Assembly (NCBI GenBank): GCA_024403855.1
Contig: JAKSRC010000003.1
Coordinates: 62,001 to 126,000 of the forward strand
Length of the DNA: 64,000 nucleotides
Direction of reading: 5' to 3'
From: Saccharofermentans sp.
GTDB taxonomy: Bacteria; Bacillota; Clostridia; Saccharofermentanales; Saccharofermentanaceae
Part shown: piece by piece, positions 17,647 to 53,965 of the stretch
Position numbering within the stretch: position 1 is the stretch's first letter
How the letters are laid out: every line of letters starts with the position of its first letter
Translations under genes and position numbers: made by a program
The notes under the pieces: model-generated
The model's input: only the letters and a program-made list of their open reading frames with translations
What the model was told of the DNA's origin: nothing
Databases searched by the model: none

Positions 17647-17711
17647 TTTCATTGTCTTTTAATATATTTATTAGGAGACTTGTGTGCTTTATTTTTTGGA
17701 GGTTAGGTAAA

Positions 17712-20700
17712 ATGACGGGTAGCTATTCGGGTCGCTTCTCGATTAAGTACGTATGCTTATTTTTATGCATACTTATCGGATTTTCTTTTGCTTTGCAATT
17801 CTTTGGAACTAATGATGTTTATGCCGCTGGTTATAACGCAGGTATAAATTCGACTGATGGAGACTCAGATCATGTCATAATTTATGTTCAAAGTTGGGAC
17901 TATGGCAAAGATGTTGAGTCACTTACTTTTACATTGTCCTTTAACCATTCTGTTGATGGTATTTACAAAGCTTGGGGACAAAGCAATCCTGATTTGCTCA
18001 GTGCTTCCAAAAAATCTGACACATCAATAACGGTAAAAATTAAGCCTAACGCGTGGGTTGCTGTTGGTATTTCAGGAACTAATATTGGTGATTTAAAAAT
18101 TACCAATAAGTCTGTTTCAGTAAATAAAAAGGCCGCTGCGACAAACACGCCTACACCTAAGCCTACAAACACAAATACTCCCACTCCGACTCCTACAAAG
18201 AAGCCTACACCCACGCCTACAAAGAAGCCTACACCTACACCGACAAAGGCTCCTGCTACACCCACGCCTACAAAGAAGCCTACAAATACACCTACACCCA
18301 AGCCGACTAACACTGCTACACCGAAGCCCACAGCAACAAAGGCTCCGACAGCAACACCCAAGCCGACTAACACTGCTACACCGAAGCCCACAGCTACGAA
18401 GGCTCCGACAGCAACACCCAAGCCGACTAATACTGCTACACCGAAGCCCACAGCAACAAAGGCTCCGACAGCAACACCTAAGCCGACTAATACAAATACA
18501 CCGGTACCTGCCAAGGCTACAGCTACACCTATTCCTGTAAATGTGGCAACATCTACCCCCACAAATACTCCGGCGCCTACAAACACAAGCACACCTGTAC
18601 CTACTAATACATCTACGCCCGTTCCTACTGAGGCAGAGATAACTCCTACAAACGCGCCTGATGCAACAACAGCAACTACAGATGAAACTACTGCAACAGA
18701 CGCACTTGTTGGCGGTGTTCTCGCATCTGAAGAAACGACTGAAGCTACAACAGCTGGTTCTGATAACGGTACAGGAGATGGCACACCTACTCCTACACCA
18801 ACACCTGTTACTGCCCAGCTTGCATCTACAGGCAAGAAGAAGGGACCTGCTAACCCCAAGTGGCTCTGGTGGATTCTTATTGTCATTGCCGCAGGTGCTG
18901 CAATTCTGAGATACAGATATCTCAAGAAGAATACAAAACTTGAAGGTATCGATCTCGCTATAGCTTTCATCCCGGGCGTTCCTTTTATTGCTGATAAGTT
19001 TGGTTATCTTGGACCGGTTTCATCAGTTCCGGTTGTAGAAGCGCCGAAGCCGGAAGAGAAAAAAGCATTTAATGCTGCTTCCGCTATGAAAGAACTCAAG
19101 GCTATGAAGGATGAAGACATCAATCCTTTCAAGCCTGCAGATGGCGTGACAAGACCTGTTCAGCAGAAAGGTCCTATGAAGCTTCCTTCAGATCGTTCCG
19201 TCAACTCACCCAAGGCAACTACAGATAGCAAGTTCCAGACTCCTTCCAGAACTGCTGCAAATACATCCGCTAATTCATCTTTGAAGACCAATGCTTTCAA
19301 TAGTGGAAAGACCGCTACTGATTCAAAGGCGGCTATGGGCGGAGTCGCTGCTACAACTGCAGCAACCAGATCATCCTCATATAAGGAATCACCTTTCAGA
19401 TCAACAAATGCTTCAGGTGTTCAGACTACAGTTAATTCTGTAGCTCAGAATAATGCCATGAGGGCTGCTATGAGATCCGAGAAGAGTGTTAGTGCTCACA
19501 ATGCTCCAAGCACGGTTGCAGCAAAGGCAGCTTCTCAGAATCACGCAACAAAGAATACTTTTGCGGCAAAAACACAGCAGACAGCTAATTCTGCATTCAG
19601 GCCGGTTAAGCCTACAACTGATGCAGCTGCAACTCCCGCAACAACAAGTGCTACATCAGCAAACAGACCTGTTGCAAGTGCACCCAAGGCAAGCCGTGGA
19701 GCTCAGAACTCAGCATTTAAGAGTGCTTTCGAGCATACAAAGGAACCTACAACACGTCCTGCTGCTGATACATCAAATGCTAATTTCCCTTTCAAGGCTG
19801 CTCCAACTCCCGATGCTAGCAAGGCAGCACCTGTGGCTGCAGTAGCCGGTTCAGTAGCAGTAGCTGCACGTAAGGATGAGAAGAATACTCAGCAGATTAA
19901 GCGTCCTAAGTCTTCACTTACTCCGGAGCAGATCGCTGAACGCGAAAAAGCCATGAAGGTTCTTGAAGAGAGAAGAGCAGCACAGGCTGCACGCGTAGAG
20001 GAAATCAGAAAGAACGCTGAACTTAAGAAGGCTCAGGAAGAAGCAAGAGCTAAAGAAGAGGCTATAAAGGCTGAAGAAGCTCGTAAAGCTGAAGCTGCAA
20101 GAAAAGCAGAAGAAGCTAAGAAGGCTGAAGAAGCAAGAAAGGCAAAGGCAGCTGCTGAAGCAGCAGAGCGCGCCAGAATTGAAGAGGCCAGAAAAGCTGA
20201 AGAAGCAGCAAAGGCAGCAGCTATAGCGACAGCTGAAGCTGAAGCCAAGGCTGAAGAAGCAAGAAGAATTCAGGAATCTATAAAGGCAGCCGAGATTGCA
20301 AAGGCAGAAGAGGCTAGAAAAGCCGCTGAAGCAAAGAAGGCAGAAGAGGCAGCAAAGGCTGCAGAAGAAGCTCTTGCTGCACAGAAAGCGAAGGCAGAAG
20401 CAGAGGAAGCTGCAAGACTTGCAGCTCAGGCTCAGGCTGAAGCCGAAGCAAAGATCAATGAAGCTCAGAAGGCCATCAGAGAAGCAGACGCAGCCAGAGA
20501 AATGAAGGCTGAAAGAGCTAAGGAACAGGCGAAGACATCTGCATTCTTCAAGAATACACTGGCTTCATCTGATAATGCTGTTGTTCCTGGTATTTCTGCT
20601 ATGGCATCTACTGAAGGATACGGTAAGATGCTCGATGACAAGAAAGAATCAGTTTCTGAGAGCAGACCTAGTCCGTTCGCATCATTTAAGAGCGGTTCTT

Positions 20701-21281
20701 CTTCCGGCGTCGGTGCTTCTGCATCTAAGACTGTCTCAGGTCCTTCTATCTCTAAGGAAGCTGCAAAGGCTTCATCTAACTCTTCACAGTTAGGAAACAT
20801 GCTTTCAGGCAAGACATATAACAATTCAGGAAGAGCTCCCGTTTGGGCTGCACCCGGAATGGCTAATGTATCCGCTTTCAAGGAAAGTGAAGAGGTCATG
20901 GAAGCAAGAAGACTTGAAGAACAGAAGCGTCTTGAGGAAGAAGAAGCTAAGAGACAGGCTGACGAAAAGGCAAAAGCTGCTTACACAAGCATCGCTGATA
21001 CTGCAATTACACGTAAGTCAGCATTCTTCAAGAGAGTTCAGACTGAAAGAACACCTTCTGCTGATCAGCAGGAACACACTTCTGCTTACGGCGGAATAGT
21101 AAGACCTGTTGCTTCAGGAAGCGAGAACGATTCAAATAAGTCACCTGCTATTGGTGCTGCACTTGAAGGACAGAGACCTGCTATAATGGATCCAAATACT
21201 AATGTTGCTCCTACAGCATCTAAGCCGATGGCAGGCTTCAAGGGCCTGGATAACAACGAAGGCGCTCAGGATAACAACTAA
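17712..21281 (+). CDS. Giant envelope-spanning protein: beta domain, Thr/Pro linker, TM helix, cytoplasmic coiled coil
   Basis: This protein has 1189 residues from ATG 17712, chosen because GGAGG lies just upstream and the promoter excludes the TTG at 17652. Order of parts: signal peptide cut after VYAA (residue 39); an extracellular beta-rich domain (about 41-140) whose spacing of Trp and Val residues recalls the N-terminal domain of the neighbouring GH5 protein; a Thr/Pro-rich linker (about 144-372) with exact DNA repeats; a membrane helix (about 381-403); a long low-complexity Ala/Ser/Thr region; an Ala/Glu/Lys coiled coil (about 735-943, KAEEARKAEAA-type repeats as in TolA); and a disordered tail. 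It links the cell surface to a large cytoplasmic scaffold. Function is unknown; it heads the operon that holds the VYGPP peptide and its radical SAM enzyme. Confidence 0.85.
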   Translation: MTGSYSGRFSIKYVCLFLCILIGFSFALQFFGTNDVYAAGYNAGINSTDGDSDHVIIYVQSWDYGKDVESLTFTLSFNHSVDGIYKAWGQSNPDLLSASKKSDTSITVKIKPNAWVAVGISGTNIGDLKITNKSVSVNKKAAATNTPTPKPTNTNTPTPTPTKKPTPTPTKKPTPTPTKAPATPTPTKKPTNTPTPKPTNTATPKPTATKAPTATPKPTNTATPKPTATKAPTATPKPTNTATPKPTATKAPTATPKPTNTNTPVPAKATATPIPVNVATSTPTNTPAPTNTSTPVPTNTSTPVPTEAEITPTNAPDATTATTDETTATDALVGGVLASEETTEATTAGSDNGTGDGTPTPTPTPVTAQLASTGKKKGPANPKWLWWILIVIAAGAAILRYRYLKKNTKLEGIDLAIAFIPGVPFIADKFGYLGPVSSVPVVEAPKPEEKKAFNAASAMKELKAMKDEDINPFKPADGVTRPVQQKGPMKLPSDRSVNSPKATTDSKFQTPSRTAANTSANSSLKTNAFNSGKTATDSKAAMGGVAATTAATRSSSYKESPFRSTNASGVQTTVNSVAQNNAMRAAMRSEKSVSAHNAPSTVAAKAASQNHATKNTFAAKTQQTANSAFRPVKPTTDAAATPATTSATSANRPVASAPKASRGAQNSAFKSAFEHTKEPTTRPAADTSNANFPFKAAPTPDASKAAPVAAVAGSVAVAARKDEKNTQQIKRPKSSLTPEQIAEREKAMKVLEERRAAQAARVEEIRKNAELKKAQEEARAKEEAIKAEEARKAEAARKAEEAKKAEEARKAKAAAEAAERARIEEARKAEEAAKAAAIATAEAEAKAEEARRIQESIKAAEIAKAEEARKAAEAKKAEEAAKAAEEALAAQKAKAEAEEAARLAAQAQAEAEAKINEAQKAIREADAAREMKAERAKEQAKTSAFFKNTLASSDNAVVPGISAMASTEGYGKMLDDKKESVSESRPSPFASFKSGSSSGVGASASKTVSGPSISKEAAKASSNSSQLGNMLSGKTYNNSGRAPVWAAPGMANVSAFKESEEVMEARRLEEQKRLEEEEAKRQADEKAKAAYTSIADTAITRKSAFFKRVQTERTPSADQQEHTSAYGGIVRPVASGSENDSNKSPAIGAALEGQRPAIMDPNTNVAPTASKPMAGFKGLDNNEGAQDNN
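18301..18480 (+). repeat. Three tandem 60-bp repeats encoding the Thr/Pro linker
   Basis: Three near-identical 60-bp units (starting AGCCGACTAAYACTGCTACA) lie head to tail and a partial fourth begins at 18481. Units differ by only a few silent changes, which suggests recent duplication. They encode TATPKPTATKAPTATPKPTN units. Shorter ACAAAGAAGCCTACACC repeats lie just upstream (about 18196-18240). Confidence 0.95.
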
Positions 21282-21302
21282 GGTTACCAAGGAGAGAAGA
21301 CT

Positions 21303-21596
21303 ATGAAGAAATCAAAAAAGCCACTCACATTTGCTGCAGTTGCCGCAAGTATTGGTGCTTTGAGCATGGCTGTTGAAGGCTGTGTCTATGGACCTCCGCC
21401 GGTTGCCGTTTACGGACCTCCGCCGGAACCTGAGACTACAGTCACAGAAGAGACAGAAGTAGATGTTACGGATCCGACTGATTCTTCAGCTCCTTCAGAT
21501 ACTGAAGAAGTGTGCGTTTATGGACCTCCGGCTGACAGTATTGATGTTGACGGTCCTGAAGTAGATGTTTACGGACCTCCTCCGGGAGATGAGTAA
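21303..21596 (+). CDS. Secreted VYGPP-repeat peptide, probable substrate of the adjacent radical SAM enzyme
   Basis: This 97-residue protein has a basic start (MKKSKK), a hydrophobic stretch (residues 8-26) and then VEGC: Cys27 could be lipidated, although Glu at -2 makes the lipobox poor. The mature part holds four VYGPP motifs at residues 28-32, 36-40, 72-76 and 89-93, in two pairs separated by an acidic Thr/Glu/Asp/Ser stretch; a VDGP at 82-85 looks like a decayed copy. Cys27 and Cys71 sit directly before the first and third motifs (CVYGPP). Start follows AAGGAGAGAAGACT, 21 bp after the giant gene, and the radical SAM gene starts 4 bp after its stop. Repeated short motifs in a small exported peptide next to a SPASM enzyme indicate a ribosomally made, modified peptide. 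The modification is unknown. Confidence 0.85.
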   Translation: MKKSKKPLTFAAVAASIGALSMAVEGCVYGPPPVAVYGPPPEPETTVTEETEVDVTDPTDSSAPSDTEEVCVYGPPADSIDVDGPEVDVYGPPPGDE

Positions 21597-21600
21597 CTCT

Positions 21601-22680
21601 ATGGCTGTCGACGTTACAGAAGCGAAAAAGTTTTTTCTCGATAAGAAGGCTGTTGAAAGAGCCAGACTTTTCGCCAAGCCGGAACTTATATACCTGTTTT
21701 TTGAATTAACAAGGAGCTGCAATTCGAAGTGTTTCCATTGCGGCAGCCGTTGTGAGCCCGGATTGGGTGACGGCCCTGATAAAGAGGAATTCAAAAAGGT
21801 ATTAAGAGATGTTAAGGAGAATTTCGACTTAAAGAAACTCCAGCTCTGTATTACCGGTGGCGAACCGCTTTTATACCGTGATTTTGAAGAACTTCTGACC
21901 TATGCGGTCAGCCTTGGTTTCCATTGGGGAATGACCACCAATGCTACCCTTATTACCAAAGACGTTGCTGATATGCTCGCAAGAGCAGGAATGGGAACTG
22001 TATCCGTAAGTATTGACGGACTTCGCGATTCCCATGACAGACAAAGAGGCATTGTCGGTGGCTACGACAGGGCGATGGAAGGCATAGAGAATCTTATCGA
22101 CCGTAAGGCCTTTAAGCATGTCCAGGTTACGACAGTTGTAAATCACAAGAATATCGGTGAATTAGATGAGCTGTACGATATTCTTGATAAGCTTGATCTT
22201 GATTCATGGCGTGTTATCGGAATTGAGCCTATGGGAAGAGCTTTGGACTATCCTGATATGCTCCTGACACCTGACGACCAGAGATACCTTTTTAACTATA
22301 TTCGCGAAAAGAGAGAAAAGGGCATTCCCGTAAATTACGGCTGCTCACATTTCCTTGGTCTGGATTACGAAAGAGATGTAAGAGACTGGTTCTTCTATTG
22401 TGGAGCCGGAACTCATACTGCTGCTATCAGGGTTAACGGTGACATTACTGCCTGCCTTGATATCGAAGAAAGACCGGAATTTGTTCAGGGCAATATCTAT
22501 AAAGATAAGTTCAGTGATGTATGGAATAACCGTTTTCAGGCATTCAGACAGCCGCTTTCCAATCTCTGCGGAGATTGTCAGAAGTGCGAATGGGAGAAGT
22601 GGTGTGCCGGTGGTTCAAGACACAGCTTCGATTACGATGAGAACAAGCAGAGAGTCTGCTTCAAGGACATTCTCTTTTAA
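21601..22680 (+). CDS. Radical SAM/SPASM peptide-modifying enzyme, rSAM/lipoprotein-system type
   Basis: This 359-residue enzyme has the radical SAM motif CNSKCFHC (Cys40, Cys44, Cys47) and the SAM-binding TGGEP. The C-terminal part carries SPASM-like cysteines: YCGAG, ITACLDIEE, then CGDCQKC, EKWC and a final VCF, enough for auxiliary Fe-S clusters. Segments such as GFHWGMTTNATLIT, VNYGCSHFLG and FVQGNIYKDKFSDVWNNRF resemble, from memory, the 'rSAM/lipoprotein system' enzymes best known from Bacteroidetes (TIGR04133), whose partner is a small lipoprotein with YG-P motifs. ATG 21601 was chosen; in-frame ATGs at 21565 and 21589 overlap the peptide gene and are badly spaced from GGGAGA. It should act in the cytoplasm on the VYGPP peptide before export. 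Confidence 0.9.
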   Translation: MAVDVTEAKKFFLDKKAVERARLFAKPELIYLFFELTRSCNSKCFHCGSRCEPGLGDGPDKEEFKKVLRDVKENFDLKKLQLCITGGEPLLYRDFEELLTYAVSLGFHWGMTTNATLITKDVADMLARAGMGTVSVSIDGLRDSHDRQRGIVGGYDRAMEGIENLIDRKAFKHVQVTTVVNHKNIGELDELYDILDKLDLDSWRVIGIEPMGRALDYPDMLLTPDDQRYLFNYIREKREKGIPVNYGCSHFLGLDYERDVRDWFFYCGAGTHTAAIRVNGDITACLDIEERPEFVQGNIYKDKFSDVWNNRFQAFRQPLSNLCGDCQKCEWEKWCAGGSRHSFDYDENKQRVCFKDILF

Positions 22681-52368: not shown

Positions 52369-53748
52369 TTATTCCTGTCCCGGCTGTTCCAAACCTGAAG
52401 TGAGAAGCTTAACTGCTATAGCGCACTCGATTCTCTTGCGGAAAATGTCGCAACCCATCTCATAGATGCCATTAATATCGCCTGAAGCGTGATATGCATT
52501 TGCAGCACATCCGCCGGAGCAGTAAAGCTTAGCCCAGCAGTTTTCGCATTCGGGACGGCTATAGGCATTGCAACGGCTGAACTTATCCTGAAGGTCGAGG
52601 TTTGTTACTCCGTCGTAAATCGATCCCATCTTGTATGCGTCATCACCAACGAACTGGTGGCAAGGGTAGAGGTCACCCCATGGAGTTACAGCAAGATACT
52701 CTGTACCTGATCCACAACCTGCAATTCTCTTATAGATGCAGGGGCCGCATGTAAGGTCGAGCATATAGTGGTAGAAAGTAAAAGGTCTGCCTTCGTTATA
52801 ACGTGCGACCATAAGTCTCGCGAGTTCCTCGTACTGCTCGAAAATAACAGGGAGGTCCTCATTTGTAATAGCAGAAGGGCTTGAAGGGTCGGTTACTACC
52901 GGCTCCATTGAAAGCTCGGAAAAACCAAGATCCAACATCTGCTTAATATCATTTACAAAATCTGTATTAAAGTGCGTAAAAGTGCCGCGCATATAGTAGC
53001 TGCGGTCGCCACGCTTTTCGACGAATTTCTGGAAATTGGGAACGATTCTGTCGTAAGAACCATTACCTGCATAATCGACTCTGAAACGGTCATTGACTTC
53101 TTTACGGCCGTCTAAAGAAAGAACGACGTTGTGTATTTCACGGTTGCAGAATTCAGTAACCTCGTCATCCAAAAGAACACCGTTGGTTGTAAGTGTAAAA
53201 CGGATATTCTTGTTGTGGAGCTTCTCCTGTTCGCGTCCGTATGCAACGAGCTGCTTTACAACATCCCAGTTCATAAGGGGCTCACCGCCGAAGAAGTCGA
53301 TATCAAGATTCTTGTGGAATCCGGAATTCTCGATAAGGAAATCGATTGCACGCTTACCTACTTCATAGCTCATTATCGCGCGCTCACCGTGGTATTTACC
53401 CTGGCTTGCAAAACAATAGGAACAATTGAGATTGCAGGTGTGTGCTACGTGAAGGCACAAAGCCTTGATCTTGATGTTCTTCTTACGAAAATCCTTTGCC
53501 AGACTGGCATATTTATCAGGAGCGTAGAGTTTTCCGGCTGTTTTCAAATCGTCGATATCGGCAATGCATTCTTCGGCGTCTTCTCGTGAGATGCCGTGCT
53601 TTTCGATAGCTTTGGAAATAACATCCTCGGCAGATTCTGTCTCATACCATTGAATCATGTCATAAGCGACAGGATCAACCATATGAATAGAACCCGAATA
53701 GCAGTCGAGTACGATGTTAAGACCTTCAAATTGATAGCAGTGGATCAT
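52369..53748 (-). CDS. scfB: SCIFF thioether maturase (radical SAM/SPASM)
   Basis: This 459-residue enzyme forms Cys-to-Thr (or similar) thioether cross-links in the SCIFF peptide encoded just upstream. The N-terminal 90 residues look like the peptide-recognition (RRE) domain; the radical SAM motif is CNLNCSYC (near residue 104), with FFGGEPLMNW for SAM binding; and the SPASM region has CGPCIYKRIAGCGSGTEYLAV, LYPCHQFVG, CENCWAKLYCSGGC and a late GCDIF cysteine. All are expected for the six-cysteine-in-forty-five maturases universal in Clostridia. Start ATG 53748 follows CAGGAGTTT. It is transcribed after the peptide gene through an intergenic terminator, so less enzyme than peptide is made. 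Confidence 0.96.
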   Translation of the reverse strand: MIHCYQFEGLNIVLDCYSGSIHMVDPVAYDMIQWYETESAEDVISKAIEKHGISREDAEECIADIDDLKTAGKLYAPDKYASLAKDFRKKNIKIKALCLHVAHTCNLNCSYCFASQGKYHGERAIMSYEVGKRAIDFLIENSGFHKNLDIDFFGGEPLMNWDVVKQLVAYGREQEKLHNKNIRFTLTTNGVLLDDEVTEFCNREIHNVVLSLDGRKEVNDRFRVDYAGNGSYDRIVPNFQKFVEKRGDRSYYMRGTFTHFNTDFVNDIKQMLDLGFSELSMEPVVTDPSSPSAITNEDLPVIFEQYEELARLMVARYNEGRPFTFYHYMLDLTCGPCIYKRIAGCGSGTEYLAVTPWGDLYPCHQFVGDDAYKMGSIYDGVTNLDLQDKFSRCNAYSRPECENCWAKLYCSGGCAANAYHASGDINGIYEMGCDIFRKRIECAIAVKLLTSGLEQPGQE

Positions 53749-53818: not shown

Positions 53819-53965
53819 TTATTTAGAAAGCTTCTCGCAAGGCTGGTTTGCAACACCGCAAGATGTCTTGCAAGCAGACTGGCAAGATGTCTGGCACTCG
53901 CCGCATCCGCCTTCCTTAGCTGACTTCTCGAGATCTCTTGTCTCAACAGTAACGATTCTTGTCAT
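53819..53965 (-). CDS. scfA: SCIFF precursor peptide
   Basis: This 48-residue peptide, too short for routine gene calls, is the six-cysteines-in-forty-five precursor. It starts MTRIVTVETRDLEKSAKEGG, and the core has cysteines at 21, 24, 28, 32, 36 and 43 in the pattern CGECQTSCQSACKTSC then VANQPCEKLSK. The thioether acceptors are expected among the Thr/Ser residues between cysteines. The N-terminal VETRDLEKSA segment is the conserved leader bound by the maturase. AGGGAGACTAATAAC before the ATG is a good ribosome site, and a near-consensus promoter lies directly upstream. The biological role of SCIFF in Clostridia is still unknown. Confidence 0.96.
   Translation of the reverse strand: MTRIVTVETRDLEKSAKEGGCGECQTSCQSACKTSCGVANQPCEKLSK

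What the first reader, a model, noticed from the sequence alone, without database searches (positions are those of the whole stretch)
21303..22680. VYGPP-repeat secreted peptide paired with a radical SAM/SPASM enzyme: candidate undescribed modified-peptide system
Seen: a 97-residue exported peptide with four VYGPP motifs (residues 28-32, 36-40, 72-76, 89-93), two of them preceded by Cys, sits 4 bp before a SPASM enzyme with CNSKCFHC and several auxiliary-cluster cysteines. Known: SPASM enzymes next to small repeat-bearing peptides usually modify those repeats; the enzyme resembles from memory the rSAM/lipoprotein-system family (TIGR04133), whose product is not characterised. Inference: each Tyr-Gly-Pro unit is a modification site, perhaps a cross-link at Tyr or a Cys-to-Tyr/Gly linkage in CVYGPP, made in the cytoplasm before export of the peptide to the cell surface.
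Basis: partly seen in the sequence, partly recalled or inferred. Interest (0 to 1): 0.92.

Follow-up and report, generated by a model that had tools for sequence, protein, structure and literature searches.

The report
Lipoprotein with repeated enzyme-modified VYGPP sites
A small exported bacterial protein carries several copies of the five-residue motif VYGPP and is nearly always encoded with a radical enzyme that very probably rewrites the backbone at each copy (most likely by cutting out part of the tyrosine), a two-gene system found here across gut and rumen Firmicutes and Coriobacteria that had no family name in the libraries searched.

Summary
In detail: a 97-aa signal-bearing peptide (21303-21596) with four VYGPP motifs lies 4 bp before a 359-aa radical SAM/SPASM gene (21601-22680). 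The pairing is real. Of 137 enzyme loci, 134 encode a YGPP peptide upstream. In 148 related genomes, 55 of 55 with the enzyme have the peptide and 0 of 93 without it do. An enzyme-blind DNA search in 697 Lachnospiraceae and Coriobacteriia-type genomes found 13 with YGPP peptides: all 13 have the enzyme, 12 adjacent. Tyr and Gly never vary in VxGPP/VYxPP (363/363). Cys precedes only 18% of motifs, so the Cys-linkage idea fails. The enzyme is sister to TIGR04133 (268 bits, cut-off 425; not a member), whose lipoprotein partners carry one YGxP. The next clade holds the nif11 class of the PlpX splicease; a Nostoc precursor there ends ALYGLPPELF, close to VYGPPEDF. Best reading: a splicease-like system that excises tyramine at each X-Tyr-Gly, leaving several alpha-keto-beta-amino residues (-135 Da each) on a cell-envelope protein, perhaps an anchored protease inhibitor. 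The chemistry is inferred, not shown. New variant of a known kind; the main genome-mining paper on spliceases could not be read here.

The parts
21290..21296 (+). Shine-Dalgarno AGGAGAG of the peptide gene
   Evidence: sequence
21303..21596 (+). YGPP-repeat precursor lipoprotein-like peptide, 97 aa (stop included in coordinates)
   Evidence: homologues in 134 of 137 enzyme loci; no NCBIfam or Pfam family
21303..21380 (+). N-terminal export signal (residues 1-26, basic then hydrophobic)
   Evidence: sequence; Cys at residues 15-42 in 104 of 107 homologues
21381..21383 (+). Cys27, lipobox position; the box (V-E-G-C) is non-canonical here but canonical in many homologues
21384..21398 (+). VYGPP motif 1 (residues 28-32)
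21408..21422 (+). VYGPP motif 2 (residues 36-40)
21516..21530 (+). VYGPP motif 3 (residues 72-76)
21567..21581 (+). VYGPP motif 4 (residues 89-93)
21584..21589 (+). Probable Shine-Dalgarno GGGAGA of the enzyme gene, inside the end of the peptide gene (translational coupling, inferred)
   Evidence: sequence
21601..22680 (+). Radical SAM/SPASM peptide-modifying enzyme, 359 aa
   Evidence: Pfam; NCBIfam nearest TIGR04133 below cut-off; AlphaFold2 mean pLDDT 93.5, nearest PDB folds SkfB, anSME, SuiB
21718..21741 (+). CX3CX2C radical SAM [4Fe-4S] motif CNSKCFHC (C40, C44, C47)
   Evidence: invariant
21751..21753 (+). C51, extra Cys (HCGSxC), near-invariant; shared with TIGR04133 enzymes and the Agathobacter homologue
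22342..22344 (+). C248 (YGCSH), invariant extra Cys, possible auxiliary-cluster ligand; shared with TIGR04133 enzymes and the Agathobacter homologue
22399..22659 (+). SPASM domain, Cys 267, 285, 326, 329, 335, 353; the usual CX3C cysteine after C335 is absent

Best explanation
A two-gene radical SAM modification system. The SPASM enzyme acts in the cytoplasm on each Val-Tyr-Gly-Pro-Pro motif of the peptide before export. [quoted passage not shown] The modified protein is then exported and, in most members, probably lipid-anchored through the N-terminal Cys, displaying 1-7 ketoamide groups on a disordered acidic stalk. Since spliceotide ketoamides inhibit proteases, the likely role is an anchored protease inhibitor or another electrophilic surface decoy. 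Shown: pairing, motif invariance, phylogeny, distribution. Inferred: order of events, chemistry, lipidation, role.
For: Pairing: 134 of 137 enzyme loci have a YGPP peptide upstream, usually within about 30 bp; 55/55 against 0/93 genomes; enzyme-blind search 13/13, with the one chance motif (G305) lacking the enzyme. Site: VYxPP 363/363 Gly, VxGPP 363/363 Tyr. Outside the window's close relatives only the two genes are conserved. Chemistry: TIGR04134 partners of TIGR04133 carry CEYGSP, CYGMP, CEYGTP at or just after the lipobox. PlpXY acts on MYG/LYG, with tag RPLYGLPI tested, and removes tyramine (PMC10533398; PMC11002830). A TIGR04103 locus (Nif11 precursor, enzyme, small gene in the PlpY position) has core ALYGLPPELF. 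The TIGR04103-containing clade is sister to TIGR04133+YGPP, 97/96. Ketoamide spliceotides inhibit proteases. Trans copies and unrelated scaffolds (DUF805 membrane protein, zinc ribbon) carry the motif.
Against: No mass-spectrometric data exist for this pair, nor did I find any for TIGR04133. The TIGR04103-containing clade also holds GDL-motif enzymes whose sampled candidate substrates lack a clear XYG(x)P motif, so clade position does not prove the chemistry. PlpX needs PlpY; no conserved partner gene exists here. The enzyme is only 27% identical to the Nostoc TIGR04103 protein and has a different auxiliary Cys set. Known spliceotides have Nif11/NHLP leaders, not export signals.
Confidence: 0.66

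Rival explanations
1. The enzyme forms a cross-link at Tyr (three-residue cyclophane, C-O-C or C-C bond to Gly or Pro), a loss of 2 Da per motif.
For: SPASM enzymes often cross-link aromatic residues (established knowledge); Tyr is invariant.
Against: The two residues after Tyr are always Gly and nearly always Pro, poor partners for a side-chain cross-link; cyclophane maturase families (XyeB, YhhB) are not among the best 25 NCBIfam matches, while TIGR04133, AhbD, MftC, NirJ and TIGR04103 are.
Confidence: 0.15
2. Another Tyr-centred reaction: epimerisation at or next to Tyr, oxidation, or backbone cleavage at Tyr without rejoining.
For: The mycofactocin enzyme MftC acts on a Val-Tyr dipeptide by oxidative decarboxylation (PMC7491314) and is a distant relative.
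Against: Internal Tyr has no free carboxylate to lose; the XYG(x)P motif matches splicease sites specifically.
Confidence: 0.13
3. Cys-based cross-link in CVYGPP.
For: Two of the four motifs in the window follow Cys.
Against: Cys precedes 67 of 379 motif contexts; most motifs in 107 peptides have Asp, Thr, Asn, Gly or Ala there. 45 of 76 Cys-preceded motifs are first motifs, at the lipobox position.
Confidence: 0.02
4. The peptide is not a substrate: an ordinary repeat lipoprotein co-transcribed with an unrelated enzyme.
For: No biochemistry exists; the gene pair lies in a syntenic block in close relatives.
Against: Perfect co-occurrence across two phyla (Bacillota and Actinomycetota), stand-alone motif copies found in enzyme-positive genomes, and no other gene conserved beside the pair.
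Confidence: 0.04

Closest known systems
rSAM/lipoprotein system, TIGR04133 enzyme + TIGR04134 lipoprotein (Bacteroidota, Treponema)
   Same: Sister enzyme clade (95/97), 37-39% identity, same extra Cys (C51, C248) and same missing SPASM Cys; exported substrate with YGxP; adjacent genes.
   Different: Enzyme below the TIGR04133 cut-off (268 against 425 bits) in the window; substrate does not match TIGR04134. There one YGxP followed by a CarboxypepD_reg-like domain; here 1-7 VYGPP copies on a disordered acidic stalk.
Spliceotide system PlpA/PlpX/PlpY (Nif11/NHLP precursors; TIGR04103-type enzymes)
   Same: X-Tyr-Gly target, often YGxP(P); SPASM radical SAM enzyme in the neighbouring clade; several sites per precursor possible.
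   Different: Export signal instead of Nif11/NHLP leader; no PlpY-like partner; different auxiliary Cys; near-fixed Val before Tyr and Pro-Pro after Gly.
Mycofactocin MftA/MftC
   Same: SPASM enzyme acting on a Val-Tyr pair.
   Different: C-terminal Val-Tyr, decarboxylation, cofactor product, MftB chaperone; enzyme only about 30% identical and in a separate branch.

Membership tests
TIGR04133 (rSAM_w_lipo) | Score above the curated cut-off of 425 bits | tested here: not met
   268.2 bits, though best of all NCBIfam models; best E-value among 32 homologues 6.6e-86
TIGR04133 (rSAM_w_lipo) | Adjacent TIGR04134 lipoprotein | tested here: not met
   No TIGR04134 match in the genome or in 24 YGPP peptides; the partner is a YGPP peptide
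TIGR04133 (rSAM_w_lipo) | Common ancestry and Cys pattern | tested here: met
   Sister clade; C51 and C248 present, CX3C Cys absent in both
Spliceotide (PlpX-type) | X-Tyr-Gly site in the precursor | tested here: met
   VYG in every repeat of the window peptide; Tyr and Gly 363/363 across homologues
Spliceotide (PlpX-type) | TIGR04103-class enzyme | tested here: not met
   108 bits against cut-off 725; neighbouring but separate clade
Spliceotide (PlpX-type) | Nif11/NHLP leader and PlpY partner | tested here: not met
   Export signal; no Nif11 match; no conserved third gene
Spliceotide (PlpX-type) | Tyramine excision, about -135.07 Da | not testable with these tools
   Needs co-expression and mass spectrometry
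Sactipeptide/ranthipeptide | Conserved Cys donors in the core | tested here: not met
   Cys before 67 of 379 motif contexts
Lipoprotein | Canonical lipobox [LVI][ASTVI][GAS]C | tested here: inconclusive
   V-E-G-C in the window peptide; a relaxed lipobox in 63 of 107 homologues; Cys at residues 15-42 in 104 of 107
Radical SAM/SPASM | CX3CX2C and SPASM domain | tested here: met
   Pfam Radical_SAM and SPASM above cut-offs; fold matches SkfB, anSME, SuiB

The most novel reading that the evidence does not exclude
A leaderless, partner-free branch of spliceases that treats VYGPP as a portable motif, installing up to seven backbone ketoamides on exported and membrane proteins of gut anaerobes, so that the cell surface carries anchored multi-warhead protease inhibitors; the same chemistry would then explain the uncharacterised TIGR04133/TIGR04134 systems of Bacteroidota.
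Probability: 0.4. Interest if true: 0.85.

Novelty: new variant of a known kind. Interest (0 to 1): 0.72.

Why it matters
If true, backbone-altering tyramine splicing would be a common surface-protein modification in rumen and gut bacteria rather than a rarity of secreted natural products, TIGR04133 would gain a testable function, and a short enzyme-only tag (VYGPP, no leader, no partner protein) would be a useful tool for placing reactive ketones in proteins.

Tried and rejected
Cys cross-link: rejected on motif statistics. Filing under TIGR04133/TIGR04134: cut-offs not met. A third conserved gene (transporter, protease, RRE-like partner): none outside the close relatives' synteny. Literature: no paper held mentions TIGR04133, YGPP together with radical SAM, or VYGPP; Scott et al. 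2022 and two other papers that I looked up by DOI are not held. G013 looked like a peptide without enzyme but is an unrelated lipoprotein with no YGPP. G305 matched the DNA pattern but not in a YGPP-family protein. Enzyme loci without YGPP upstream: L101 and L130 remain unexplained; L141 has a YGSP zinc-ribbon protein instead. PlpX itself was not retrieved; a Nostoc TIGR04103 homologue stood in for it. Promoter/terminator scan gave nothing above shuffles.

Full report
Observation. The window encodes, on the + strand, a 97-aa peptide (21303-21596) with four VYGPP motifs and, 4 bp further, a 359-aa radical SAM/SPASM protein (21601-22680). The motif count is far beyond chance and the copies use different codons.

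Pairing. Orthologues of the enzyme (420 bits or more) occur in 55 of 148 related genomes. A profile of the peptide, searched independently, rings in the same 55 and in one more, G013, which is an unrelated lipoprotein without YGPP. A scan of one genome per species for relatives of the enzyme gave 550, of which the best 80 come from Saccharofermentans-type bacteria, Lachnospiraceae, Erysipelotrichaceae and Coriobacteriia. In all, 134 of 137 loci encode a YGPP protein just upstream; some genomes are counted twice because two searches fetched them, and 107 distinct peptides remain. To avoid starting from the enzyme I searched 697 genomes (397 from the family of a Lachnospiraceae genome, 300 from the class of a Coriobacteriaceae genome) for a DNA pattern encoding VYGPP, an acidic residue, any residue and Phe/Leu: 14 genomes matched, one of them by chance (G305, no orthologue). 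All 13 others hold the enzyme, 11 visibly adjacent, one (G777) adjacent across a contig break, one (G271) elsewhere in the genome. Relatedness among genomes means that the raw odds (10^-41 for 55/55 against 0/93) overstate the case, but patchy spread over two phyla makes inheritance alone an unlikely cause.

The motif. Over 379 unique contexts the residue before Tyr is Val in 354; Cys two before Tyr occurs in 67. Leaving one position free at a time, VYxPP is Gly in 363 of 363 and VxGPP is Tyr in 363 of 363. Repeat spacing clusters at 15-19 residues, and the mature parts are rich in Pro, Glu, Asp and Thr. Peptides carry 1-7 copies. Most have a basic-hydrophobic signal with a Cys at residues 15-42; nine have an RRxF start typical of Tat signals, seen in Coriobacteriia loci. 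The lipobox of the window peptide (VEGC) is not canonical, so lipidation is likely but unproven.

Motif portability. Stand-alone YG[PA]P lipoproteins lie away from the enzyme in enzyme-positive genomes (L164-L167, L169, L170). Other scaffolds carry the motif too: a DUF805 membrane protein with a YGPP tail, beside the enzyme in L218 and apart from it in L217, a zinc-ribbon-like protein with two YGSP sites beside a 52% identical enzyme in L141, and a 47-residue peptide without signal in L201. This points to recognition of the short motif rather than of a leader (inference). Beyond close relatives, no third gene is conserved.

The enzyme. AlphaFold2 gives a confident model (mean pLDDT 93.5) whose nearest solved folds are SkfB, anSME, SuiB and, further down, PqqE. 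Conserved Cys are 40, 44, 47 (radical SAM), 51 (near-invariant), 248, 267, 285, 326, 329, 335 and 353. C51, C248 and the loss of the CX3C Cys of SPASM are shared with TIGR04133 enzymes, a set that may alter auxiliary-cluster ligation (inference). Trees place YGPP enzymes as sister to TIGR04133. Genus members fall in several places among Lachnospiraceae, Erysipelotrichaceae and Coriobacteriia enzymes, which suggests horizontal transfer.

Chemistry. TIGR04134 partners carry a single YGxP at or just after the lipobox Cys (CEYGSP, CYGMP, CEYGTP). PlpXY excises tyramine from X-Tyr-Gly, naturally MYG and LYG, and tags tested with it include GPIRPLYGLPI (PMC10533398; PMC11002830). I found a Nostoc locus with Nif11 precursor, TIGR04103 enzyme (853 bits, cut-off 725) and a 71-aa gene in the PlpY position, whose core ends ALYGLPPELF, close to the VYGPPE[DM]F of this system. 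The clade with that enzyme is sister to TIGR04133+YGPP with 97/96 support. That PlpX belongs to TIGR04103 rests on its InterPro class IPR026482, which I equate with TIGR04103 from memory. Shared motif, neighbouring clade and invariant Tyr-Gly make tyramine excision the best guess; GDL-type enzymes in the same neighbouring clade warn against certainty.

Role. Spliceotide ketoamides are reported protease inhibitors (PMC11117315 and PMC10373908). An anchored stalk with up to seven Val-derived ketoamides would suit inhibition of proteases that prefer small aliphatic residues at P1; this is inference from chemistry, at most one chance in three.

Novelty. No NCBIfam (June 2026) or Pfam family names the peptide, and the window's enzyme falls below the curated cut-off of every NCBIfam model listed for it. 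No held paper mentions the motif. Scott et al. 2022, which surveyed spliceases broadly, could not be read, so prior listing of this branch is possible. I rate it a new variant of a known kind.

Noticed in passing
window 52369-53748 (-) and 53819-53965 (-): A standard SCIFF system: six-cysteine peptide TIGR03973 (82 bits, cut-off 50) and its maturase TIGR03974 (733 bits, cut-off 425).
   Followed up: yes
L217:4717-5475 (-) and L218:3271-3993 (-): DUF805 membrane proteins with a C-terminal tail of 3-4 YGPP motifs, in L218 next to the enzyme gene.
   Followed up: partly
L141:2985-3983 (+): Zinc-ribbon-like protein with two YGSP sites, one in an EN-x4-IYGSP context like that of the VYGPP repeats, upstream of a 52% identical enzyme; no signal peptide apparent.
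   Followed up: partly
L164, L165, L166, L167, L169, L170: Stand-alone YG[PA]P lipoprotein genes away from the enzyme in enzyme-positive genomes: probable substrates in trans.
   Followed up: partly
L201:1408-1548 (+): 47-aa peptide MKNLIYKSPEMDIMVFEAED...EVYGPPEWF without export signal, about 5 kb from the YGPP system of the same genome.
   Followed up: no
L221:6639-8460 (+): Nostoc sp. C057 plasmid: Nif11 precursor with core ALYGLPPELF, TIGR04103 enzyme and 71-aa partner, a probable spliceotide locus.
   Followed up: yes
window 17652-21281 (+): 1209-aa protein with a signal, long Thr-Pro repeats, a membrane helix and an Ala/Glu/Lys-rich region, ending 21 bp before the peptide gene; no Pfam match; related upstream genes in 23 close loci.
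   Followed up: no
L101 and L130: Enzyme orthologues with no YGPP protein in the DNA held; the substrate may lie elsewhere.
   Followed up: partly
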